A stretch of DNA of 32,727 nt from positions 1-32,727 of the forward strand of contig JAGQIK010000244.1 in assembly GCA_020431405.1 (NCBI GenBank), read 5' to 3'. Position numbers and translations under genes: made by a program. Shown here piece after piece: positions 1,670 to 31,034 of this stretch (positions are counted from its first letter, which is position 1; the number at the start of each line of letters is the position of its first letter). Below the pieces are notes generated by a model. The model saw only the letters and a list, made by a program, of their open reading frames with translations, was not told where the DNA came from and did not search any database. This DNA comes from Myxococcales bacterium (GTDB lineage Bacteria > Myxococcota_A > Polyangia > GCA-2747355).

Positions 1670-3010
1670 CTAGCGACGACGGCGGCGCAGCAGCGCCAGG
1701 CCGAGCAGCGCGAGCAGCATCAGGCCGAGGCCCTCGGCGCCGCCGCCGACAGCGCAACCGCCGCTCGACTCGCCCTGCGCCGCGATGGTGACGACGACCT
1801 TGGGCGCCTGCTTCTTCCAGGCCGGGTTGACCGAGTCAGCGAAGAGCAGGTTCGCAGAGAGCTCGACCTTGTAGTTGCCCGGCTCGTCGGGCGTGAAGCG
1901 CGCCACGGCGCCCTTCTGGTAGAAGTACTCGAAGGTGCTCGACACGTTGGCGATGCCGCGCGGGTTCTGCACGGTGGCGTTGCTGCCCGACGGCCGACCG
2001 ACCACGCGCCAGGTGTACTGGATGGCGTGATTTTGACGGTTGGCGAAGAGACGCAGGCGCATGGGGTCGCCCACGGCTCCGGCGAGATCCACCGAGCGCA
2101 CCTGGAACGTGGCGGTCGGGTCGAGACAGGCCTCGTGGTTGAAGCTTCCGTCGGCGCCGCGCACGACGTAGCAGAACTTGGGATCGCAGGCGTCGCCGAG
2201 ATCGTCGCGGTCGCCGTTGAGCTGCAGCGGGTTGGCTTTGGCGACGCAGTTGTCCTTGGTGTTGACGATGCCGTCGCCGTCCTTGTCGGTGTCGCAGGCG
2301 TCGCCGAGGCCGTCGCCGTCGAGATCCTTCTGCTCGATGTTGGCCACCGCGACGCAGTTGTCCTTGCTGTCCTCGATGCCGTCACCGTCGGTGTCGTTGT
2401 CGCAGGCGTCGCCGAACGTGTCGGGATCGGTGTTGAGCTGATTCGGGTTGGCTACCAGCGGGCAGTTGTCCTTGATGTTGGGGATGCCGTCGTTGTCGGC
2501 GTCGGCGTCGCAGGCGTCGCCCTTGCCGTCGTTGTCGGTGTCGAGCTGCGCCACGCCGGACAGCGGCGTGTTGGGGACCAGCTGGCAGTTGTCGTCGGCG
2601 TTGAGCACGCCGTCGTTGTCCATGTCCGGGTCGCAGAGGTCGCCGACGCCGTCACCGTCTTGGTCGAGCTGCAGCACGTTGGCCACGTTGGTGCAGCTGT
2701 CGCAGAGATCGCCGATGCCGTCGCCGTCGCTGTCGGCCTGCGAGACGTTGTTGACGTAGGGACAGTTGTCGTAGTCGTCTTCGAAGCCGTCGTTGTCGAA
2801 GTCGTCGGCGTACTGGTAGGTGTCGCCCTCGTCGGTGTTGTTGACGAGGATCGAGCCGCCGCCGCAGCCGCAGCCGCCACCGCCGCCGCCGCCTGATTGG
2901 TTGGGCGTTCCGCAGAACGATCCGCCGCACTCCATGCCCGAGGCGAAGGCGGCCCCCGGACTGAGCAGCACGACGCTGGCGATCATGGCGACGAGGGTCT
3001 TGGCGTTCAT
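1670..3010 (-). CDS. Thrombospondin type 3 repeat surface protein with MYXO-CTERM-like tail (copy 1)
   Basis: The 446-residue exported protein starts with a signal peptide ending near AAFA-SG. A Cys/Gly-rich N-terminus follows (MECGGSFCG, then a run of Gly), then about eight calcium-binding type 3 repeats of the form DxDxDGxxDxxDNC, and then a beta-rich domain ([17 protein letters not shown]) that looks Ig- or PKD-like. The end is Cys, Gly-rich linker, hydrophobic helix and LLRRRRR, the pattern of MYXO-CTERM sorting signals, so cell-surface anchoring is likely. The ATG at 3010 is preferred to the one at 3037 because AAGGGAG lies just upstream and the signal peptide begins there. It is a tandem duplicate of the next gene. 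Confidence 0.88.
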
Positions 3011-3074
3011 TTCGATGAGCTCCCTTCGTGTGTTCATTTCGTCGCGGACGACTGCGCCGCGGCCGGTGACTTCG

Positions 3075-4439
3075 TTAACTGCGACGACGCGAGATGAGGA
3101 CGAGGCCGAGCAGCAGCAGCAGGGTCGCGCCGGTGCCAGCGCCGGCGCTGCCGCCGAGCGAGCAGCCGCCCGTTCCCTCGCCTTCGGCGACGACGGTCAT
3201 CACGATCTTCTTGGCTTCCTTCTTCCAGGCCGGGTTGACCGAGTCGGCGAAGAGCAGCGCAGCAGCGAGCTCGACCTTGTAGGTGCCAGGCTGGTCGGGC
3301 GTGAAGCGCGCGGCGTTGCCCTTCTGGTAGAAGTACTCGTAGGTGCTCGAGACGTTGACGATGCCGCGCGGGTTGAGCACGGTCGCGTTGGAGCCGCTCG
3401 GGCGACCGACCACGCGCCACGTGTAGCTGATGGCGTGGTGTTGCCGGTTGGCGAACAGGCGCAGCCTTGCCGGCTCGCCGGTGCGCGCGCGCAGGTTCGG
3501 CGCCGCCACGCGGAACGTCAGCGTGGGATCGAGGCATGCCACGGCGGTGTTGGCCTGCCCGCGGTCGTCGCGCACGACGTAGCAGAACTTCGCGTCGCAG
3601 GCGTCACCCTGATCGTCGCGGTCGCTGTTGAGCTGCAGCGGGTTGTACTTGTCGACGCAGTTGTCTTTGACGTTGACGACGCCGTCACCGTCCTTGTCGG
3701 AGTCGCAGGCGTCGCCGATGCCATCGCCATCGAGGTCCTTCTGCTCGACGTTGGCCACGGCGATGCAATTGTCCTTGGTGTCCTCGATGCCGTCGCCGTC
3801 GGTATCGGCGTCGCAAGCGTCACCGAAGGTGTCGGGATCGGTGTTGAGCTGGTTGGGGTTGGCCACCAGCGGGCAGTTGTCCTTGATGTTGGGGATGCCG
3901 TCGTTGTCGGCGTCGGCGTCGCAAGCGTCGCCTTGACCGTCGCCATCGGTGTCGAGCTGCGCCACGCCGGACAGCGGGGTGTTGGGGATCAGCTTGCAGT
4001 TGTCGTCGGCGTTGAGCACGCCGTCGTTGTCCATGTCGGGATCGCAGAGATCGCCGATGCCGTCGCCGTCCTGGTCGAGCTGCAGCACGTTGGCCACAGC
4101 GGTGCAGCTGTCGCAGAGATCGCCGATGCCGTCGCCGTCGGTGTCGACCTGCGAGACGTTGCTGACGTAGGGACAGTTGTCGTAGTCGTCCTCGAAGCCG
4201 TCGTTGTCGTAGTCGTCGGCGTATTGATACGTGTCGCCCTCGTCGGTGTTGTTGACGAGGATCGAGCCGCCTCCGCAGCCGCCGCCGCTGCAGTTGCCAT
4301 CGGTGCACGGCGCGCCGCCCGACTGGTTGGGTGTGCCGCAGAAAGAGCCGCCGCACTCCATGCCCGAGGCGTAAGCCGGACCTGCCCAAACCCACAGCAT
4401 GGCCGCCATCGCAGCCATCGTCGTCATCAGCGCTCGCAT
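3075..4439 (-). CDS. Thrombospondin type 3 repeat surface protein with MYXO-CTERM-like tail (copy 2)
   Basis: This 454-residue paralogue of the preceding protein has the same order of parts: signal peptide (cleavage near AYA-SG), [16 protein letters not shown], a short extra Cys-containing insert ([10 protein letters not shown]), about eight type 3 repeats, an Ig/PKD-like domain and a Cys-hydrophobic-SRRRS tail. Similarity runs through the coding DNA at an offset of 1411 bp, so the pair arose by tandem duplication. GGGAGG just before the ATG at 4439 supports the start. With only 64 bp between the two genes, they are probably co-transcribed, this copy first. Calcium binding and surface display follow from the family; the partner or substrate is unknown. 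Confidence 0.88.
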
Positions 4440-5446: not shown

Positions 5447-5504
5447 GCGCGAGTCTCCACCCGGCGTAACCGCGCCAGACGGCCGCGCGTAGTGCGTGGC
5501 TGTC

Positions 5505-6353
5505 ATGCATCAAGAAAAGCTCGACCTCGCCCGCGGCGTAGGCCTGCGGCGCGAACACTTCACGCACCTGCTCGAGCACGACCCCGGAGACGTGGCGTGG
5601 TTCGAGATCATCTCGGAGAACTTCTTCGAGCCGGGCGGTCGTCCTTGGGCGGTGCTCGAGAAGCTGCGCGCCGAGCGCCCCGTGGTGATGCACGGCGTCG
5701 CCATGGGCGTCGGCAACGCGACCGGCATCTCGCGTGACTACCTCGCGCGGCTCGCCGCGCTGATCGAGCGCGTCGAGCCGGCGTGGATCTCGGATCACCT
5801 CTGCTGGGGTGGCTTCGGCGGCCACTACGCCCACGACCTGCTGCCGCTGCCGTACACCGAAGAAGCCGTGCGCCACGTCGCTGCGCAAGTGCGCCTCGCG
5901 CAGGACGTGCTCGGTCGGCGCATGCTGCTCGAGAACGTCTCGAGCTACGTTGGCTTCGAGATCAGCGCCATGAGCGAGGTCGAGTTTGTCTGCGCCGTGG
6001 CGGCGGAGGCCGACTGCGGTCTGCTGCTCGACATCAACAACGTCTACGTCAGCGCGCACAACCACGGCTTTGACGCCGGCGCGTACGTCGACGCGATCCC
6101 TGCCGCTCGCATCGGGCAGATCCACCTCGCCGGCCACAGCGACCAAGGTGACTACCTCTTCGACAGTCACGACGGTCCCGTCATCGACGCGGTGTGGGCG
6201 CTCTATCGGCGCGTGATCGAGCGCGTGGGCGCCGTGCCGACGTTGATCGAGTGGGACGAGCACATCCCGAGCTACGAGCGGCTGGCCGGCGAGGCGCGCG
6301 CGGCCGGCGAGCTCTCGCGCAGCGCTTGCGAGGCACGTGATGCAGCAGCCTGA
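5505..6353 (+). CDS. bufB: DUF692 / MNIO-family multinuclear iron oxygenase, BufB-like
   Basis: The 282-residue TIM-barrel enzyme belongs to the family of MbnB, TglH and ChrH, which use a cluster of iron ions and oxygen to remodel Cys residues of peptides. Visible signatures are the early GVGLRREHF, HGVAMGVG (H63), SDHLCW (97-101), ENVSSY (E143), DINNVYVSAHNHG (176-188), IHLAGH (207-211) and LIEWDEHIP (E249, D251); the His, Glu, Asp and Asn residues are the expected metal ligands. It overlaps the next gene, and a Cys-rich precursor follows, so the likely substrate is the peptide at 7153-7431. The ATG at 5505 is preferred; a GTG at 5496 is in frame. Neither has a good Shine-Dalgarno. Confidence 0.92.
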   Translation: MHQEKLDLARGVGLRREHFTHLLEHDPGDVAWFEIISENFFEPGGRPWAVLEKLRAERPVVMHGVAMGVGNATGISRDYLARLAALIERVEPAWISDHLCWGGFGGHYAHDLLPLPYTEEAVRHVAAQVRLAQDVLGRRMLLENVSSYVGFEISAMSEVEFVCAVAAEADCGLLLDINNVYVSAHNHGFDAGAYVDAIPAARIGQIHLAGHSDQGDYLFDSHDGPVIDAVWALYRRVIERVGAVPTLIEWDEHIPSYERLAGEARAAGELSRSACEARDAAA

Positions 6354-7101
6354 TCTCGCGCAGCTGCAGCGCCGCTTCTGGCGCCTCATCACCGCGCCAC
6401 GCGGTGTCGAAGCCGGGCTCGACGAGATCGCGCGTCGCGGCGATGACCCCGACGCGCGGCCGCTTGCCGCGTGGCTGCGCGGAGGCGTCGAGCGGCTCGA
6501 CATCTACGCCAACATGTACTTCTACCGGCTGCTCGACGTGCTGCGCGAAGACTTCGCGCGCTGCGAGGCACGCGTGGGCGCCGACGACTTTCACGACCTG
6601 GTCACCGACTACCTGCTCGCCTTTCCGCCCGACGCGCCGTCGCTTCGTGCGCTCGGCGAGCGCTTCGCGGACTTCATCGCCCGACACGACATCGCGCGCG
6701 AGCACCCGCGCCTCGCGAACCTGGCGCGCTACGAATGGGCGCGCGTCGAGGTCTTCGACGCCGCGGACGTGGCGACGCTGGCCCTCGAGCAGCTCGCGGC
6801 GCTCGCGCCCGACGCGCTGCCCGAGCTGCCGCTACAGACCGTCGCCGCTGCGCGCGTGATCGATGCCCCCGACGGTGACGGCGCGCTGCTGGTCTGGCGG
6901 CGCGGCTTTCTGGTCTACGAGCGCCCGCTCGACGCGCGCGAAGCGCAGCTGCTGCCTGTGCTCGCGCAGGGCCGCACCTTCGAAGCGCTCTGTCAGGCGC
7001 TGCACGAGCAGAGCGGCGCCGCCGAAATCGAAGCCGTACAGCACATCGCGCAGCTCGTCGCCCGTTGGACCGGCGAGCAGCTGCTGCGCGACCTTCAGTA
7101 A
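6340..7101 (+). CDS. bufC: DUF2063 putative DNA-binding domain protein, BufC-like partner
   Basis: The 253-residue protein has the N-terminal helical domain annotated as DUF2063 (FWRLITAPRG near the start, then ERLDIYANMYFYRLLDVLREDF and HDLVTDYL). A C-terminal domain of about 100 residues carries LLVWRRGFLVYERPL, which resembles winged-helix RiPP recognition modules. In bufferin and related clusters this protein accompanies the DUF692 enzyme and probably presents the precursor to it. The family name suggests DNA binding, but a role in peptide recognition fits the context better. The ATG at 6340 is preferred (GAGG at 6330-6333); a GTG at 6337 is adjacent. It overlaps bufB by 14 nt, so the two are translationally coupled. 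Confidence 0.88.
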   Translation: MQQPDLAQLQRRFWRLITAPRGVEAGLDEIARRGDDPDARPLAAWLRGGVERLDIYANMYFYRLLDVLREDFARCEARVGADDFHDLVTDYLLAFPPDAPSLRALGERFADFIARHDIAREHPRLANLARYEWARVEVFDAADVATLALEQLAALAPDALPELPLQTVAAARVIDAPDGDGALLVWRRGFLVYERPLDAREAQLLPVLAQGRTFEALCQALHEQSGAAEIEAVQHIAQLVARWTGEQLLRDLQ

Positions 7102-7152
7102 CCCCGCTCGCCCCCACTCGGACGAGCCTCTAGCACCACCACAGGAGCTGAC

Positions 7153-7431
7153 ATGAACATCAAGGACACCATCAAAGCATCCATCATCGCCGTCGCAGCC
7201 GCCGGGCTATTCGGCTGCGCATCTACCCAGAGCACCTCCGGCGGCGCCAGCACCGCGCCGGCGGCGAGCGGCGGCGAGATGGTCAAGTGCGCCGGCATCA
7301 ACGCCTGTCAGGGCAAGGGGCAGTGCGGCGGCGCCGGTCACGCCTGCGCGGGCAAGAACGCGTGCAAGGGCAAGGGCTGGGTCAAGGTCAGCAAGGCCGA
7401 CTGCTCGTCCAAGGGCGGCAAGGCGATGTAG
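7153..7431 (+). CDS. bufA: Bufferin-like Cys-rich precursor peptide with lipobox
   Basis: The 92-residue peptide has an export signal (residues 1-21) ending in LFGC, a good lipobox with C22. A Ser/Thr/Ala/Gly linker follows (23-43), then a core with six Cys (46, 52, 58, 65, 71, 84) in the pattern KCAGINAC, GKGQC, HACAGKNACKGKGWV, ADC. The CxGxNxCKGKG repeats match the family now named BufA2-type bufferins, metal-buffering RiPPs whose Cys are converted by the MNIO enzyme. AGGAG 6 nt before the ATG supports the start. It is the last gene of the cluster (order B-C-A) and ends 9 bp before the convergent ubiE. Bufferins known to me are free periplasmic peptides; lipid anchoring here is inferred from LFGC. 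Confidence 0.85.
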   Translation: MNIKDTIKASIIAVAAAGLFGCASTQSTSGGASTAPAASGGEMVKCAGINACQGKGQCGGAGHACAGKNACKGKGWVKVSKADCSSKGGKAM

Positions 7432-24457: not shown

Positions 24458-26566
24458 TCAGCGCGGATCGGAGAGCGAGAAGCGATCGATGGTCTCGCCG
24501 GTAACGCTGACCGTCTCGGCTTCGACGCGATCGCCGTCGACGTAGACGAACACCTGATTGCGCTGCGCGCTGAAGCGTTTGACCGACTTGGTCCATGGCA
24601 GCGCGCGGTTCTGCGCGTAGTAGGGCGCGCCGGCGCCGCCGGTGGTGACGGCGAAGATCGGGTAGCTGAAGGATGGGTCGACGCGCTGGTCGACCAGCGT
24701 GCGGCTGTAGTTGTGCTCGTCGCCGAAAAACGCGCCGCGCACCTCGTGCTTGACGAGGATGCGCCACAGCGCGTTGCGGCGGCGCACGCTGGCCGGGTCT
24801 CCGTGGTAGTACATCGCGTCCTTGGCGTGGCCGCCGTTGGGGAACGCCGGCTCGTGCGTGAATACGAACGAATGGCGTGCGCCGCGCTTGCGGGCGGCGG
24901 CGAGGTCCTTGTCGAGCCACGCGAGCTGCGGCTTGGTCACCCAGCCCTCGCGGTAGCCGCGCTTGCCCACCGGGTGGTCGTCGCGGAACGGGTGCGAGCG
25001 ATAGAAGTAGTTGCTGTTGAGCACGACGAAGTGGGCGTTGCCGTAGTCGAAGCTGTAGACGTTTTCTTTGTAGGTCGGCTCGCCGGGCGTCGGCTCGGGC
25101 GCGTTGGTCGGGTTGGTGAAGACCTTGGCGAAGACGGTCTGGCTGTTTTCGGGGCCGCCGCGGTGGTCGGCGCACCAACCCGAGCTCCATGCGTCGATCA
25201 GCTGCTCGTGATTGCCCATGCCTTCGTAGATCGGGATGTGCGTGTCGGTCGGCTGCGCGACCCAGGCGAAGGCCTCGAGCTGGCGGCGCAGGTCGGCGGC
25301 CTCGGTGGTGTAGCCGTCGGCGAGATCGCCGGGGAAGAGCACCATCGCGGCGCCACGCAGCAGCGCGCGCTCGAGGTGGCGCCGCAGCACGGACATGTTC
25401 ACGCCGCGGTAGCTCGCCTCGCCGATGTCCTTGGCCGCGCGGCTGTCGGTCATCACCGAGAACATGAACGGCGTCGAGCTGCCCGGGCGCGGCGCGGCGC
25501 GCACCAGGCCCACCGGCGAGCGCGCTACCTCGCCGCGGCGATCGACGGCCAGCGCGTAGTAGCGGTAGTAGGCGTTGGCTCGGAGCCCGCCGACGGGGAT
25601 CTCGTGACGCAGCCCGGGCGCCTTGCCGTGCACGACGCGCACCTTGCCGGCGCGATCGACGAGCAGCACGCCGCCGTGTGTTGGCACGTCGGTGGTGAAG
25701 GTCACGTAGAGGCCGCGGTCGGTGAGCAGATCGACGTGCGGGCCATCGAGCAGCGTGGGCAGCTGCACGAAGGTCGGCGCCGCGGCGCACGGCGTCTTGG
25801 CGCAGCGGAAGTAGACGACGTTGTCATAGATGTGCGACGTGGCGCGCTGCGCGTCGAGCAGCTCGACGCGATAGTAGGCGCGGCCGTGTCCGCGCGTGCG
25901 CACGTCGTTGACGTCGTAGCGGCGCACGAGCAGCCGCGGCAACTTGAAGGTGGCGTGCTGCAGCCCGGGCCGCTTGCTGACCTCGACCTTGCCGCGCAGC
26001 CGGTTGCGCTGCACGCGAAAGATCGAGGCGCGCGGCGCGAGCCCGAAGTAGATCGCGCCACGCGGGTGGTGGCGCAGCGTCTCCCAGCTGACGGTGATCG
26101 TGCCGTCGGCGGCGACCTTGGCGCCAGGCAGGCGCTGGTAGATCAGCGCGTGGCCCCGCACGCGCACCGATTTTTCGCGCTTCGGCACGTCGCGACGAAG
26201 GTGGCGCTGTAGATCGGCCGAGGTGCGCCACGACGGCGGCAGCTTGTCGACGGCGACGGGTCGCAGCGCGCCGATGGCGGGCGTGGCGGGCAGCTTGGCG
26301 AAGGCGCTCTCGCGCTTGAAGCGCGCGGCGGCGGCGCGCAGCGTGGCGACGCTCGGCGCCGCGGGATAGCGCGCGAGCGAGAAGCGCCAGCGCGGATCGA
26401 TCGCGAAGGGCAGCGCTGGCTTCTTGGCGGGCGCTACCGCGCTGCCGGGCGCGGGGCTGTGAGGCTTGGCGCCGCTGCCGGAGCTTGCAGAGCCGCGGCT
26501 GCAGCCAGCGATGGTGATGGCGAGCAGCGTGCCGCACGCCAGGCGACAACACGCTGCGCAGCTCAT
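24458..26566 (-). CDS. Metallophosphoesterase lipoprotein (purple-acid-phosphatase-like)
   Basis: The 702-residue product has a lipobox (TIAGC, C22), an N-terminal half with beta-rich, fibronectin-like character (VTFTTDVPTHGGVLLVDRAG, then NAYYRYYALAVD), and a C-terminal calcineurin-like phosphoesterase domain. Metal motifs are FSVMTDSR, LFPGDLADG, MGNHEQ and FFGDEHNYSR. GD and GNHE are standard; the first (DSR for DxH) and last (GDEHNY for GHxH) are variants, so metal set and activity may differ from the classic enzyme. It is exported and probably lipid-anchored. The ATG at 26566 overlaps the upstream lipoprotein stop (ATGA), and the signal peptide begins there. Confidence 0.88.
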   Translation of the reverse strand: MSCAACCRLACGTLLAITIAGCSRGSASSGSGAKPHSPAPGSAVAPAKKPALPFAIDPRWRFSLARYPAAPSVATLRAAAARFKRESAFAKLPATPAIGALRPVAVDKLPPSWRTSADLQRHLRRDVPKREKSVRVRGHALIYQRLPGAKVAADGTITVSWETLRHHPRGAIYFGLAPRASIFRVQRNRLRGKVEVSKRPGLQHATFKLPRLLVRRYDVNDVRTRGHGRAYYRVELLDAQRATSHIYDNVVYFRCAKTPCAAAPTFVQLPTLLDGPHVDLLTDRGLYVTFTTDVPTHGGVLLVDRAGKVRVVHGKAPGLRHEIPVGGLRANAYYRYYALAVDRRGEVARSPVGLVRAAPRPGSSTPFMFSVMTDSRAAKDIGEASYRGVNMSVLRRHLERALLRGAAMVLFPGDLADGYTTEAADLRRQLEAFAWVAQPTDTHIPIYEGMGNHEQLIDAWSSGWCADHRGGPENSQTVFAKVFTNPTNAPEPTPGEPTYKENVYSFDYGNAHFVVLNSNYFYRSHPFRDDHPVGKRGYREGWVTKPQLAWLDKDLAAARKRGARHSFVFTHEPAFPNGGHAKDAMYYHGDPASVRRRNALWRILVKHEVRGAFFGDEHNYSRTLVDQRVDPSFSYPIFAVTTGGAGAPYYAQNRALPWTKSVKRFSAQRNQVFVYVDGDRVEAETVSVTGETIDRFSLSDPR

Positions 26567-27030
26567 GGCAGTCGCGAAAGCCCGAGGCGCGAGAGCAGCT
26601 GCGACGACTCGCGCGTGAAGCCGTAGTACGTGGCCGGCCCGCGCGGCGACGGCGTGAGCGTCAGCTTGAGGTCGAAGGGCTTGGGCCCCTGCACGCGATG
26701 GATGGTGAAGCGCGAGCGCACGCGTTGCGCCTTGTGCGGCAGGTTGAAGCGGATCTCGTCGTCGTGGACCTCGAAGGCGAACAGCTCGAAGTGTCCGGCG
26801 AAGACCGTGCGGTCCTGGTAGACGCCGCCGCCCATCGCCGGCGTGAAGCGATAGACGTGCAGCCGCTGGTCCTTCTTCTTGGGCCACAGGTCGAGCCAGT
26901 TGCGGTTGATCAGCAGCTTGGCGGCGTCATCGCGCGAGACGAGCTGCGCGCCGTTGTCTTTGCTGCTGCAGGCGCCGAGCGCGGCGAGCAGCGCGGCGAG
27001 GAAGGCGAACGTGATGATGCGACGTTTCAT
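26563..27030 (-). CDS. Small lipoprotein of unknown function
   Basis: The 155-residue protein has a clear lipobox (LGAC, then SSKD; C21). The mature part is rich in predicted strands with aromatic residues (RNWLDLWP, RLHVYRFTP, HFELFAFEVHDDEIRFNL, YYGFTRESS), which could be a small beta-barrel of lipocalin type; this is only a guess. I do not recognise the family. It is translationally coupled to the phosphoesterase (ATGA) and lies 71 bp after the giant cytochrome gene on the same strand. TATACT stands 9 nt before its ATG and no Shine-Dalgarno is visible. Confidence 0.78.
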   Translation of the reverse strand: MKRRIITFAFLAALLAALGACSSKDNGAQLVSRDDAAKLLINRNWLDLWPKKKDQRLHVYRFTPAMGGGVYQDRTVFAGHFELFAFEVHDDEIRFNLPHKAQRVRSRFTIHRVQGPKPFDLKLTLTPSPRGPATYYGFTRESSQLLSRLGLSRLP

Positions 27031-27101: not shown

Positions 27102-30100
27102 CTAGGGCTTGCGGCCGTTGGGGTGGCAGCCGGAGTTTGTGCAGTGCTGGAAGTTGCCCGAGATGTAGCCGCTGCGGCCCTTGTGCTTGTCGTCCATCTT
27201 GTTCTGCGAGTGCTCGTGGCACGTGCCGAGACAGGACCAGTTCTTGAGGTTCACCGAGTCGATGTGACACGTGGAGCACGTGAGATTTCGGTGCTTGCCC
27301 GAGTCGATGGGGAACGTGTGGCTGAACGTCGCCGGCTTCCAGCCGTTGGTCGTGTGACAGCTGGCGCAGTCGGTGGGGAAGCCCGAGGCGAGGTGGTTGG
27401 GGATCGTCGGCGTGCTGCGGTCGCCGTTGTGGCAGCCGACGCAGGTCGTGCCGGTGGGCACCTTGGGGTTGTTCGGATCGGTGTGACACTGGGCGCAGAG
27501 CAGCGTGGCGTGGCGGCCGGTGAGCGGGAACTTGCTGTGGTCGACCGCGGCGGGTTTCCAACCGTTGACCGTGTGGCAGCTGTCGCAGAGCGTCGGGTTG
27601 CCGAGGTGGCCGGTGGCCGGCGCGGTGTGGCAGCCCTCGCAGATCTTCGGCATCGGCACCTTGGTGTGGCACTGCGCGCAGAGCACAGTGCTGTGCTTGC
27701 CGACCAGCGGCAGATACAGCGAGTGATCGAACGTGGCGCCCTTCCACACCGACGTGGTGTGGCAGTCCTGGCATGTCGTCGGGAAGCCCGTGACGAGGTG
27801 GTCGGGGTTCCAGCCGGCGGGCGGGCGATCGGTGAGGTGGCATTCGGTGCAGGTCTTGCCCTTGGGCACCGACGGGTTGTTGGGATCGGGATGGCACGAG
27901 GCGCAAGCGGGCGCCGCGTGGCCGTTGGTCAGCGGGAACTTGGTGTGATTGAACGTCGCCGGTGTCCAGGCCGCCGTGTTGTGGCAGTCGGCGCAGTTGG
28001 TCGAGAAGCCGGCGCTCTTGTGGTCGGGCCGCGTGGATGTCGAGCCGGTCGGGATCTTGCTCTGGTGACAGCCGATGCAGGTCTTGGGCACCGGCGAGGT
28101 GGCGTGGCAGCTCGCGCAGCCGACGCCGGAGTGGCCGCCGGTGAGCGGGAACGTCTGGCCGTGATCGAAGGCGGCGGGCTTCCAACCGGTGGTGGCGTGG
28201 CAGCTCTTGCAGTCGGTGGAAAAGCCGACAGCGCGATGGTCGGGCACTGTTGGCGTGCTGCGGTCGGCCTCGTGACAGCCGACGCAGGTGGTGGCCTTGG
28301 CGACCTTGGGGTTGGTCGGATCGGTGTGGCAGCTGACGCAGTCGACGCCGGCGTGCTTGCCGTCGAGCGGGAACTTGGAGTGGTCGGCGGTGGCGGGCTT
28401 CCAGGCGTTGGCCGTGTGGCACGTCTGGCAGGTCAGCGGGAAGCTCGTCGCGTAGTGATCGGGACGCGACGTGGTCGCGCCGGTGGGGCGCTCGCTGCTG
28501 TGGCAGTCGGCGCAGGTGGTGCCCTTGGCTTTCTTGGGATCGAGCGGATCGTTGTGGCAGGTGGTGCAGGCGGTGGTGGCGTGCTTGCCGACGAGCGGCA
28601 GGTACGTGTTGTGATCGAAGCTCGAGCTCTTCCACAGCGTGGCGGTGTGGCAGTCCTGGCAGGTGGTGGGAAAAACCGAGAGCGTGTGGTCGGGGTTGTA
28701 GCCGGCGGGCGGCCGGTCGCTGATGTGACAGGCGGTGCAGGTGGTGCCGGTAGGCACGGTGGGGTTGTTCGGATCGGTGTGGCACGAGCCGCACGTGGGG
28801 CCGGCGTGTCCGCCAGTAAGCGGGAACTTGCTGTGGTCGTACGCCGCGGGCGTCCAGGCGGCGATGCTGTGGCAGCTGTTGCACACGGTGGAGAAGCCCG
28901 CTGACTTGTGATCGGGGCGCGTCGACGTGGTGCCGCTCGGGATCTTGCTCTGATGGCAGCCGACGCAGGTGGTTGGGACGGGCACGGTGCCGTGGCAGCT
29001 CTGACAGCCAACGCCCGAGTGGCCGCCCGTCAGCGGGAACGTCTGGCCGTGATCGAAGGTCGCCGGCTTCCAGCCGGTGGTCGTGTGGCAGCTCTTGCAG
29101 TCGGTGGAAAAGCCGCTGGCGCGATGGTCGGGCACGCTCGGCTTGCTGCGATCGGCCTCGTGGCAGCCGACGCACGTCGTGCCCTTGGCGACCTTGGGTT
29201 GGTTGGGATCGGTGTGGCAGCCGGCGCAGTCGAGCCCCGCGTGAGCGCCGGTGAGCGGGAACTTGGCGTGGTCTACCGCGGCCGGCTTCCAGCCGTTGGC
29301 CGAGTGGCAGGTCTGACAGGCGAGCGGGAAGCTCGGCGCCTGGTGATCGGGCCGCGAGGTGGTCGAGCCCGTGGGGCGATCGGCGGCGTGACAGTCAGCG
29401 CAGCTCTTGCCCTTGGCCTTCTTGGGATCGAGCGGATCGTTGTGGCACGTGCTGCACGCGGTCGTCGCGTGCTTGCCGACCAGCGGCAGGTACGTCGAGT
29501 GATCGAAGCTCGCGCTCTTCCAGACCGTCTTGCTGTGGCAGTCGTCGCACTTGGTCGGAAAGCCCGCCAAGCGGTGGTCGGGGATGCTGCCGGCGGGCGG
29601 ACGATCGTCGAGGTGACACTCCGCGCAGGTCTTGCCCTTGGGCACGTCGGGGTTGCTCGCATCGGTGTGGCACGAGGCGCAGGTCGGACCGGCGTGCGCG
29701 TCGGTCAGTGGGAACTTGCTGTGATCGAACGTGGCAGGCGTCCAGCCCGCGCTGCTGTGACAGTTGCTGCACAGCACGGAGAAGCCGATGGCCTTGTGGT
29801 CGGGTCGCGTCGCCGTGGCGCCCGTGGGCACGTCGCTTTGGTGGCAGCCGGCGCAGGTTGTCTTGACCGGCGTGGTGTCGTGGCAGCTCGCGCAGGCGAC
29901 GCCGACGTGGCCGCCGGTGAGCGGGAAGCGCTTGCTGTGATCGTAGACGGCGGGCTTCCAGCCGGTGGTCGTGTGGCAGCGCTTGCAGTCGCTGGAAAAG
30001 CCGGTGGCGAGGTGATCGGGCAGCGTGGGCTTTTTGCGATCGGCTTCGTGGCAGCCGACGCAGGTCGTCGCTTTGGGTACCTTGGGGTTGTTCGGATCGG

Positions 30101-31034
30101 TGTGGCAGCTGGCGCAGTCGACGCCGCCGTGCTTGCCGCTGAGCGGGAACTTCGAGTGATCGGCCGCCGCGGGCTTCCATCCGTTGACCGAGTGGCAGGT
30201 CTGACACTGCATCGGGAAGCTCGTGGCGTAGTGATCGGGGCGCACCGCGGTGGTGCCCTTGGGGCGATCGGTCGCGTGGCAGTCGGCGCAGGTGGTGCCT
30301 TTTGCTTTGCTGCGATCTTGCGCGTCGGTGTGGCAGGTGGTGCATGGCGTGGTCTTGTGGCGGCCGACGAGCTCGAGCTTGTCGTGCTTGAAAGCCGCAG
30401 ATTTCCAGCCATATACGGTGTGGCACTGCTGGCAGGTGTCGGGGAAACCGGCGGCGAGGTGGTCGGGGTTGGTGCCCGCCTTGCGATCGTTGTCGTGGCA
30501 GTCGACGCAGTTTGTGCCGATCGGCGTATCAGCCTTGCTCGCGTCGGGGTGGCACTTGATGCAGGCCACGTCCGAGTGACCGCCTTCGAAGGGGAACTTG
30601 CTGTGATCGGTGACGGCGGGCTTCCAGCCTTGCACCGTGTGGCAGTTCTGACAGTCGGTGGAGAAGTCGGGCTTGGTGTGGCCTGGACCGCGCGCGCGAT
30701 CCTTTTCGTGACAGCCAACGCAGGTGGTGGGCACGGGCTCTTTGGCGTGGCAGCTGTTGCACTCGGTCTTGCTGTGGCCGCCGACCAGCGGCAGCTTGGT
30801 GTGCTCGAACGTGGCGGGCTTCCACTCCTTCTGGGTGTGGCAGCTCTCGCAGGTCGTCGGGTAGTTGGCCGCGAGGTGGTCGGGGAACTTGGCGCGGGAT
30901 CTATCCGACTCGTGGCACGACACGCAGGGGCGTGGCTCGTCGCCGACGGGAGTCCGCTGCAGCGCACAACCGCCTGTGATAACGGCGCTTGCGAGCAGCA
31001 GCAGCGGGGCGATGGTGGTCGGAGAGCGGCGCAT
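27102..31034 (-). CDS. Giant multiheme c-type cytochrome, 53 predicted haems, lipoprotein-like
   Basis: The 1310-residue protein has a signal peptide ending in ITGGC (possible lipobox, C23) and then almost nothing but haem sites: I count 51 CxxCH, one CLGTCH (CX3CH) and one CTNSGCH (CX4CH) at the end. Each three-haem module of about 74 residues holds exactly three other His, in PDH, W-P-A-x-DH and FPL-x-G-x-H, enough for bis-His ligation of every haem. Four modules form a 12-haem superrepeat, present four times, followed by a five-haem cap. It should carry electrons in or across the periplasm or at the cell surface. No porin-type partner, haem-lyase or maturation gene lies in the window. The ATG at 31034 lacks a clear Shine-Dalgarno. 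Confidence 0.95.
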   Translation of the reverse strand: MRRSPTTIAPLLLLASAVITGGCALQRTPVGDEPRPCVSCHESDRSRAKFPDHLAANYPTTCESCHTQKEWKPATFEHTKLPLVGGHSKTECNSCHAKEPVPTTCVGCHEKDRARGPGHTKPDFSTDCQNCHTVQGWKPAVTDHSKFPFEGGHSDVACIKCHPDASKADTPIGTNCVDCHDNDRKAGTNPDHLAAGFPDTCQQCHTVYGWKSAAFKHDKLELVGRHKTTPCTTCHTDAQDRSKAKGTTCADCHATDRPKGTTAVRPDHYATSFPMQCQTCHSVNGWKPAAADHSKFPLSGKHGGVDCASCHTDPNNPKVPKATTCVGCHEADRKKPTLPDHLATGFSSDCKRCHTTTGWKPAVYDHSKRFPLTGGHVGVACASCHDTTPVKTTCAGCHQSDVPTGATATRPDHKAIGFSVLCSNCHSSAGWTPATFDHSKFPLTDAHAGPTCASCHTDASNPDVPKGKTCAECHLDDRPPAGSIPDHRLAGFPTKCDDCHSKTVWKSASFDHSTYLPLVGKHATTACSTCHNDPLDPKKAKGKSCADCHAADRPTGSTTSRPDHQAPSFPLACQTCHSANGWKPAAVDHAKFPLTGAHAGLDCAGCHTDPNQPKVAKGTTCVGCHEADRSKPSVPDHRASGFSTDCKSCHTTTGWKPATFDHGQTFPLTGGHSGVGCQSCHGTVPVPTTCVGCHQSKIPSGTTSTRPDHKSAGFSTVCNSCHSIAAWTPAAYDHSKFPLTGGHAGPTCGSCHTDPNNPTVPTGTTCTACHISDRPPAGYNPDHTLSVFPTTCQDCHTATLWKSSSFDHNTYLPLVGKHATTACTTCHNDPLDPKKAKGTTCADCHSSERPTGATTSRPDHYATSFPLTCQTCHTANAWKPATADHSKFPLDGKHAGVDCVSCHTDPTNPKVAKATTCVGCHEADRSTPTVPDHRAVGFSTDCKSCHATTGWKPAAFDHGQTFPLTGGHSGVGCASCHATSPVPKTCIGCHQSKIPTGSTSTRPDHKSAGFSTNCADCHNTAAWTPATFNHTKFPLTNGHAAPACASCHPDPNNPSVPKGKTCTECHLTDRPPAGWNPDHLVTGFPTTCQDCHTTSVWKGATFDHSLYLPLVGKHSTVLCAQCHTKVPMPKICEGCHTAPATGHLGNPTLCDSCHTVNGWKPAAVDHSKFPLTGRHATLLCAQCHTDPNNPKVPTGTTCVGCHNGDRSTPTIPNHLASGFPTDCASCHTTNGWKPATFSHTFPIDSGKHRNLTCSTCHIDSVNLKNWSCLGTCHEHSQNKMDDKHKGRSGYISGNFQHCTNSGCHPNGRKP
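27444..28286 (-). repeat. Cytochrome 12-haem superrepeat 4 (843 bp)
   Basis: It covers haems 37-48 and is 45 bp shorter than units 2 and 3 because linkers in its last module are reduced (HTKVPMPKI and HTAPATGHLGNPTL). The reading frame and haem count are kept. Haems 49-53 follow as a cap. Confidence 0.85.
28287..29174 (-). repeat. Cytochrome 12-haem superrepeat 3 (888 bp)
   Basis: It covers haems 25-36 and is the same length as unit 2, with very similar protein and DNA sequence, for example PLVGKHATTAC and HNDPLDPKKAKG in both. Confidence 0.9.
29175..30062 (-). repeat. Cytochrome 12-haem superrepeat 2 (888 bp)
   Basis: It covers haems 13-24 and begins at the Cys codon of CVGCHEADRKK. The anchor GTGGCAGCC at 30048 recurs exactly 888 bp away at 29160, so the period is 296 codons. 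Confidence 0.9.
30063..30926 (-). repeat. Cytochrome 12-haem superrepeat 1 (divergent, 864 bp)
   Basis: It covers haems 1-12. Each haem and linker can be paired with haems 13-24, including the short linker after the third haem (AKEPVPTT against DTTPVKTT), but the sequence is less similar than among units 2-4. Confidence 0.75.

What the first reader, a model, noticed from the sequence alone, without database searches (positions are those of the whole stretch)
27102..31034. A 53-haem cytochrome built from four 12-haem superrepeats
Seen: 51 CxxCH plus one CX3CH and one CX4CH in 1310 residues, about one haem per 25 residues. The order is strictly periodic: triheme modules of about 74 residues, four modules per superrepeat, four superrepeats (864, 888, 888, 843 bp) and a five-haem cap. 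Every triheme module has exactly three extra His (PDH, DH, GxH). Known: multiheme cytochromes with bis-His haems form wires in Geobacter and similar bacteria. Inferred: this is a one-chain molecular wire that has grown by duplication of a 12-haem block, and the near-identity of units 2 and 3 suggests recent or gene-converted copies.
Basis: partly seen in the sequence, partly recalled or inferred. Interest (0 to 1): 0.85.

Follow-up and report, generated by a model that had tools for sequence, protein, structure and literature searches.

The report
53-haem lipoprotein cytochrome in a myxobacterium
This gene encodes a very large, lipid-anchored, haem-packed protein that most likely carries or stores electrons at the surface of a myxobacterium; such giants are already known from the PCC3 type of electron conduit, but here a shorter sister copy in the same genome shows that the gene changed size by whole blocks of twelve haems.

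Summary
ORF 31034-27102 (-) encodes 1310 aa with 51 CxxCH, one CX3CH and one CX4CH. All 107 Cys are accounted for (106 haem, 1 lipobox), with 54 spare His for 53 haems. There are 17 triheme modules with a 4-module period; the longest exact repeat is 31 bp, so this is no assembly artefact. 'Near-identity' of units 2 and 3 is wrong: 73% aa, 80% DNA, dS 0.46. A 29-haem homologue from another lineage (L012) suggests 29 is the older size. A 12-haem period is not a family rule: relatives repeat in units of 1, 2, 3, 4 or 6 modules. Most relatives outside Chlorobiaceae lie in PCC3-like clusters. The window gene has none nearby, but the same genome has one on contig C670. Best reading: an outer-membrane lipoprotein electron conduit or capacitor serving that system in trans. 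Side of membrane, partner and conduction are not shown; both AlphaFold models were too weak. Haem number is no record (85 and 112 reported). A new member of a known kind.

The parts
27102..31034 (-). CDS of the 53-haem cytochrome, 1310 aa
30966..31034 (-). lipoprotein signal peptide with lipobox TGG|C (residues 1-23); Cys23 is the only Cys not in a haem motif
   Evidence: sequence. In the M. xanthus scheme (PMC3222651) +2 is Ala (not the inner-membrane Lys) and +7 is Pro (not the matrix-type Ala)
30072..30935 (-). superrepeat 1 (modules m1-m4, 12 haems, 864 bp)
29184..30071 (-). superrepeat 2 (m5-m8, 12 haems, 888 bp); with superrepeat 3 the part absent from the paralogue (exact block boundaries cannot be fixed in a tandem repeat)
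28296..29183 (-). superrepeat 3 (m9-m12, 12 haems, 888 bp)
27453..28295 (-). superrepeat 4 (m13-m16, 12 haems, 843 bp; m16 shortened)
27234..27452 (-). module m17 (3 haems)
27105..27233 (-). two-haem C-terminal cap, CX3CH and CX4CH-P-x-G; conserved as a two-haem cap in 16- to 78-haem relatives of other phyla

Best explanation
A periplasm-exported, lipid-anchored, all-bis-His c-type cytochrome of 53 haems. It belongs to the same family as the large outer cytochromes of PCC3-like electron conduits. It most likely sits on the outer membrane and relays or stores electrons for extracellular electron transfer. Electrons would pass between quinones and the outside through the inner-membrane protein, the porin-like protein and the 36-haem cytochrome encoded at contig C670 of the same genome, with the 53-haem lipoprotein as an outer relay. 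The gene probably grew from a 29-haem, 9-module form by in-frame gain of two 4-module (12-haem) blocks. Shown: the sequence anatomy, the lipobox, the family relation, the paralogue, and the conduit genes elsewhere in the genome. Inferred: outer-membrane location, which side it faces, partnership with the C670 system, continuous conduction, and the direction of the size change.
For: All 107 Cys and 54 spare His fit 53 bis-His haems plus one lipid-anchor Cys. PF14522 cytochrome c7 matches at 233.6 bits (cut-off 24.8) with ten stretches. Relatives with 14-78 haem motifs occur in many phyla, most outside the Chlorobiaceae beside homologues of one inner-membrane protein, one FeS/FAD protein and often a porin-like protein. 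In L012 a 29-haem lipoprotein with the same N-terminus and cap follows directly on that porin-like gene and the FeS/FAD gene. The own genome holds the inner-membrane gene once, at C670, with the other parts and a 36-haem cytochrome carrying the same cap; that inner-membrane protein has both WX3HX13H motifs given for PCC3 (PMC5566968). Cytochrome c assembly genes are present. Paralogue C125 and L012 both have nine modules and 29 haems. The test on 4-module blocks prefers the window blocks as one clade (AU 0.81).
Against: No conduit gene lies in the window or beside the paralogue. The lipobox does not fix which membrane or side is used; the paralogue has Lys at +2, which marks inner-membrane lipoproteins in M. 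xanthus. The block tree does not exclude topologies with the paralogue inside the window blocks (AU up to 0.49), so loss in the paralogue remains possible. The 24-haem model is weak (pLDDT 66.7, pTM 0.27) and has no PDB match; the 1200-aa model failed (pLDDT 26.8). The genome is a 733-contig assembly, so the distance to the C670 cluster is unknown.
Confidence: 0.5

Rival explanations
1. Periplasmic capacitor or bridge: the lipoprotein is anchored in either membrane but faces the periplasm, storing electrons or spanning between the membranes, as proposed for the capacitor role of GSU1996.
For: Triheme modular build resembles GSU1996, described as a periplasmic capacitor (PMC10138318). Not linked to a porin in the window. 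The paralogue has +2 Lys.
Against: L012 places a lipoprotein of the same type directly behind the porin-like gene. The cap is shared with the larger cytochromes of PCC3-like clusters. At the roughly 100 angstrom per 10 haems quoted for MtrA, a fully extended chain would exceed a periplasm's width (inference).
Confidence: 0.3
2. The protein polymerises or lies in the extracellular matrix as a conductive or redox-buffering material between cells.
For: Large haem number; cytochrome filaments exist in Geobacter; M. xanthus exports lipoproteins to its matrix (PMC3222651).
Against: +7 is Pro, not the matrix-type Ala. No filament evidence; the Geobacter cytochrome filaments are built from 4- to 8-haem subunits (PMC10138318).
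Confidence: 0.1
3. The superrepeats are an assembly artefact or the gene is a decaying pseudogene.
For: Repeated sequence in a fragmented assembly (733 contigs).
Against: Longest exact repeat is 31 bp; repeat copies differ at 20-37% of bases. Frame open for 1310 codons, GC3 0.90, dN below dS between copies, all haem ligands kept.
Confidence: 0.02

Closest known systems
PCC3 extracellular multihaem cytochromes (He et al. 2017, PMC5566968; Gallionellaceae survey PMC10734462)
   Same: Very many haems (median 34, up to 85), repeat units, 22-39 aa per haem (here 24.7); homologous repeats; cap shared with large cytochromes of PCC3-like clusters; the same genome carries an inner-membrane protein with the PCC3 motif pair
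   Different: Encoded away from any porin or inner-membrane gene; lipoprotein signal; the C670 cluster carries one 36-haem cytochrome, apparently a periplasmic-type and an outer-type part joined, instead of two separate genes
Large multihaem cytochromes of Burkholderiales and Anaerolineales whose homologues differ by gain or loss of CxxCH domains (PMC7399161)
   Same: Haem number varies between homologues by whole segments; 22-23 aa per haem
   Different: Here the step is a phased 4-module block, visible between paralogues of one genome
GSU1996/GSU0592 dodecahaem and GSU2210 27-haem 'nanowires' of Geobacter (PMC10138318)
   Same: Chain of triheme c7-like modules; four modules make 12 haems
   Different: TIGR04257 below cut-off; no conserved Met, so no His-Met haem; lipoprotein; about four times as many haems
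MtrA/DmsE decahaem cytochromes
   Same: Best solved-structure match (chain 6r2q_A, E 5e-5) and best NCBIfam match (TIGR03508)
   Different: Score 106 against cut-off 192; local, weak alignments only

Membership tests
Cytochrome c7-like (PF14522) | score above the Pfam gathering cut-off | tested here: met
   233.6 bits vs 24.8, ten stretches
PCC3 porin-cytochrome complex | very haem-rich cytochrome with 22-39 aa per haem and repeat units | tested here: met
   24.7 aa per haem; 17 modules
PCC3 porin-cytochrome complex | gene clustered with a porin, a periplasmic multihaem cytochrome and an inner-membrane protein | tested here: not met
   none in the window or the first 20 kb of C125; such a cluster exists once on contig C670
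PCC3 porin-cytochrome complex | inner-membrane protein with two WX3HX13H motifs, SGXXG and five TM helices in the same genome | tested here: met
   C670 protein: WX3HX13H at 92 and 259, five hydrophobic stretches, TGVVG in the place of SGXXG
PCC3 porin-cytochrome complex | outer-membrane beta-barrel partner | tested here: inconclusive
   594-aa C670 protein is homologous to porin-like proteins of the L010 and L012 clusters; no Pfam match, no barrel prediction made; no MtrB PF11854 in the genome
Geobacter nanowire triheme (TIGR04257, GSU1996) | score above the NCBIfam cut-off | tested here: not met
   28 vs 40 bits
Geobacter nanowire triheme (TIGR04257, GSU1996) | one His-Met haem per triheme domain | tested here: not met
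   only four Met in 1310 residues; three spare His per module
DmsE/MtrA decahaem (TIGR03508) | score above the NCBIfam cut-off | tested here: not met
   106.3 vs 192.2 bits
bacterial lipoprotein | Sec signal with lipobox and +1 Cys | tested here: met
   TGG|C at 20-23; lipobox also in the paralogue, L012 and G003 homologues; pattern only, no dedicated predictor run
electron-conducting wire | all neighbouring haems within about 14 angstrom edge to edge | not testable with these tools
   models weak, no coordinates or haems

The most novel reading that the evidence does not exclude
A surface electron cable whose length is set by gain of whole 12-haem blocks, with a short (29-haem) and a long (53-haem) lipoprotein version kept in one myxobacterial cell and sharing a conduit encoded elsewhere.
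Probability: 0.35. Interest if true: 0.6.

Novelty: new member of a known kind. Interest (0 to 1): 0.42.

Why it matters
How giant multihaem cytochromes gain and lose haems was called an unexplored area (PMC7399161). This genome offers a natural pair, 29 and 53 haems with the same ends, that differ by exactly two 12-haem blocks. The pair could be used to ask whether conduction, reach or charge storage scales with block number. It also adds a myxobacterial lineage with a PCC3-like conduit and unlinked lipoprotein cytochromes.

Tried and rejected
Assembly artefact: rejected, longest exact repeat 31 bp. 'Near-identical, recent' copies: rejected, dS about 0.5. Record haem number: rejected, 85 and 112 motifs already reported, and 78 in relative L018. 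A fixed 12-haem unit for the family: rejected; relatives show strongest periods of 1 (L025), 2 (L044), 3 (L010), 4 (L046) or 6 (L059) modules. MtrB-type porin in the own genome: none. A search of 290 genomes of the class at E 1e-40 found 13 with a match, none closer outside the own genome than G003 (53% over a short stretch). The downstream lipoprotein and metallophosphatase have no shared context with the paralogue and are not claimed as parts.

Full report
Observation. The minus-strand ORF 31034-27102 encodes 1310 residues with 51 CxxCH, one CX3CH (residue 1268) and one CX4CH (1298). The protein has 107 Cys: two for each of 53 haems, and Cys23 in a lipobox (VITGGC). It has 107 His: 53 in the motifs and 54 others, three in each of 17 modules and three in the cap. 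There are only four Met, none placed as a repeated ligand. Shuffled sequence gives at most 4 CxxCH. The ligand pattern therefore fits bis-His ligation throughout; ligation itself is inferred.

Architecture. Modules m1-m17 run from residue 34 to 1267. Mean identity between modules is 0.67 at a distance of four and 0.48-0.51 otherwise. Superrepeats 2 and 3 are 72.6% identical in protein and 79.5% in DNA; superrepeat 1 is 52-60% identical to the others. The longest exact direct repeat is 31 bp, so short reads are unlikely to have collapsed or multiplied the blocks.

Growth. The same genome (G000, 11.2 Mb, 733 contigs, 95.7% complete) has a paralogue on contig C125 (L008 8080-10326), matching residues 13-341 and 914-1310 at 65% and 75% identity. 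It has nine modules and the same two-haem cap, 29 haems in all. By best identity and in the module trees, its first four modules mostly pair with m1-m4 and its last five with m13-m17. The window gene thus carries eight extra modules, 24 haems. L012, a contig filed under another lineage, encodes a lipoprotein with nine modules and the two-haem cap, also 29 haems. Parsimony then makes 29 the older size. The test on 4-module blocks prefers the window blocks as one clade (AU 0.81), but several alternatives are not excluded. dS between block copies is 0.47-0.55 and between paralogues 0.54-0.64: the expansion is old, close to the split. A further homologue in G003, of the same order, has 11 haems and a lipobox but lacks the cap.

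Family. Pfam assigns cytochrome c7 (PF14522); TIGR04257 and TIGR03508 score below their cut-offs. The nearest solved sequence is chain 6r2q_A, E 5e-5; I take this to be MtrA from prior knowledge, as the molecule name listed is a different one. Relatives in Bacteroidota, Ignavibacteria, Chlorobi, Chloroflexi, Planctomycetes and proteobacteria carry 14-78 haem motifs. Many share the C-terminal cap. Outside the Chlorobiaceae most lie beside an inner-membrane protein and a FeS/FAD protein, often also a porin-like protein. This matches PCC3 as described in PMC5566968, with the FeS/FAD protein in addition. Relatives have higher-order repeats of 1, 2, 3, 4 or 6 modules, so 12 haems is not a fixed unit.

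Context. None of those genes is in the window or in the first 20 kb of C125. The own genome has one such cluster on C670: an inner-membrane protein with both WX3HX13H motifs, a FeS/FAD protein, a porin-like protein and a 36-haem cytochrome. The 36-haem protein aligns over its N-terminal half with the 20-haem protein of L010, over its C-terminal half with the 16-haem outer protein of L055, and has the cap. In L012 the lipoprotein cytochrome directly follows the porin-like and FeS/FAD genes. This is the main reason to connect the window protein with that system. Two adjacent MtsC-type MYXO-CTERM proteins point to a myxobacterial host.

Mechanism. Lipid anchoring is predicted from sequence. In M. 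xanthus +2 Lys marks inner-membrane and +7 Ala matrix lipoproteins (PMC3222651); the window protein has neither, which leaves the outer membrane as default, though not the side. The paralogue has +2 Lys, which counts against a simple picture. A role in moving or storing electrons follows from the family and haem density; the substrate and direction are unknown.

Structure. AlphaFold2 on residues 322-913 with 29 sequences gave pLDDT 66.7, pTM 0.27 and no PDB match. Residues 111-1310 with three sequences failed. Haem distances were not measured.

Verdict. Observation confirmed; interpretation partly supported. Giant repeat-built cytochromes are known, up to 85 (PMC5566968) and 112 motifs (PMC11495043), and haem number is known to vary between homologues (PMC7399161). 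The worth of this case is the 29/53 pair and the unlinked lipoprotein form.

Noticed in passing
window 5496-7431 (+): Bufferin-type RiPP operon: MNIO maturase BufB (NF050167, 358.7 bits, cut-off 310), a second ORF 6337-7101, and a Cys-rich precursor at about 7153-7431 with a signal peptide.
   Followed up: partly
window 1670-3037 and 3075-4439 (-): Two tandem MtsC-like thrombospondin type 3 cohesion proteins with MYXO-CTERM ends (566 and 543 bits), which point to a myxobacterial genome.
   Followed up: partly
window 24458-27030 (-): Downstream of the cytochrome, a 155-aa lipoprotein without family match and an overlapping 702-aa metallophosphatase with a lipoprotein-like signal; not seen beside the paralogue.
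   Followed up: no
L009 (G000 contig C670) 1498-10653: PCC3-like conduit with a 36-haem cytochrome that appears to join the usual 20-haem and outer cytochromes in one chain; the same parts occur in G003 (L108). A 470-aa protein with two haem motifs precedes it.
   Followed up: partly
L107 4048-8556: In G003 the 11-haem homologue lies next to a 38-haem cytochrome of a different CX4CH/CxxCH repeat type.
   Followed up: no
L018 2-5305: A Chloroflexi relative with 78 haem motifs in 1767 aa (5' end open) and the same cap.
   Followed up: no
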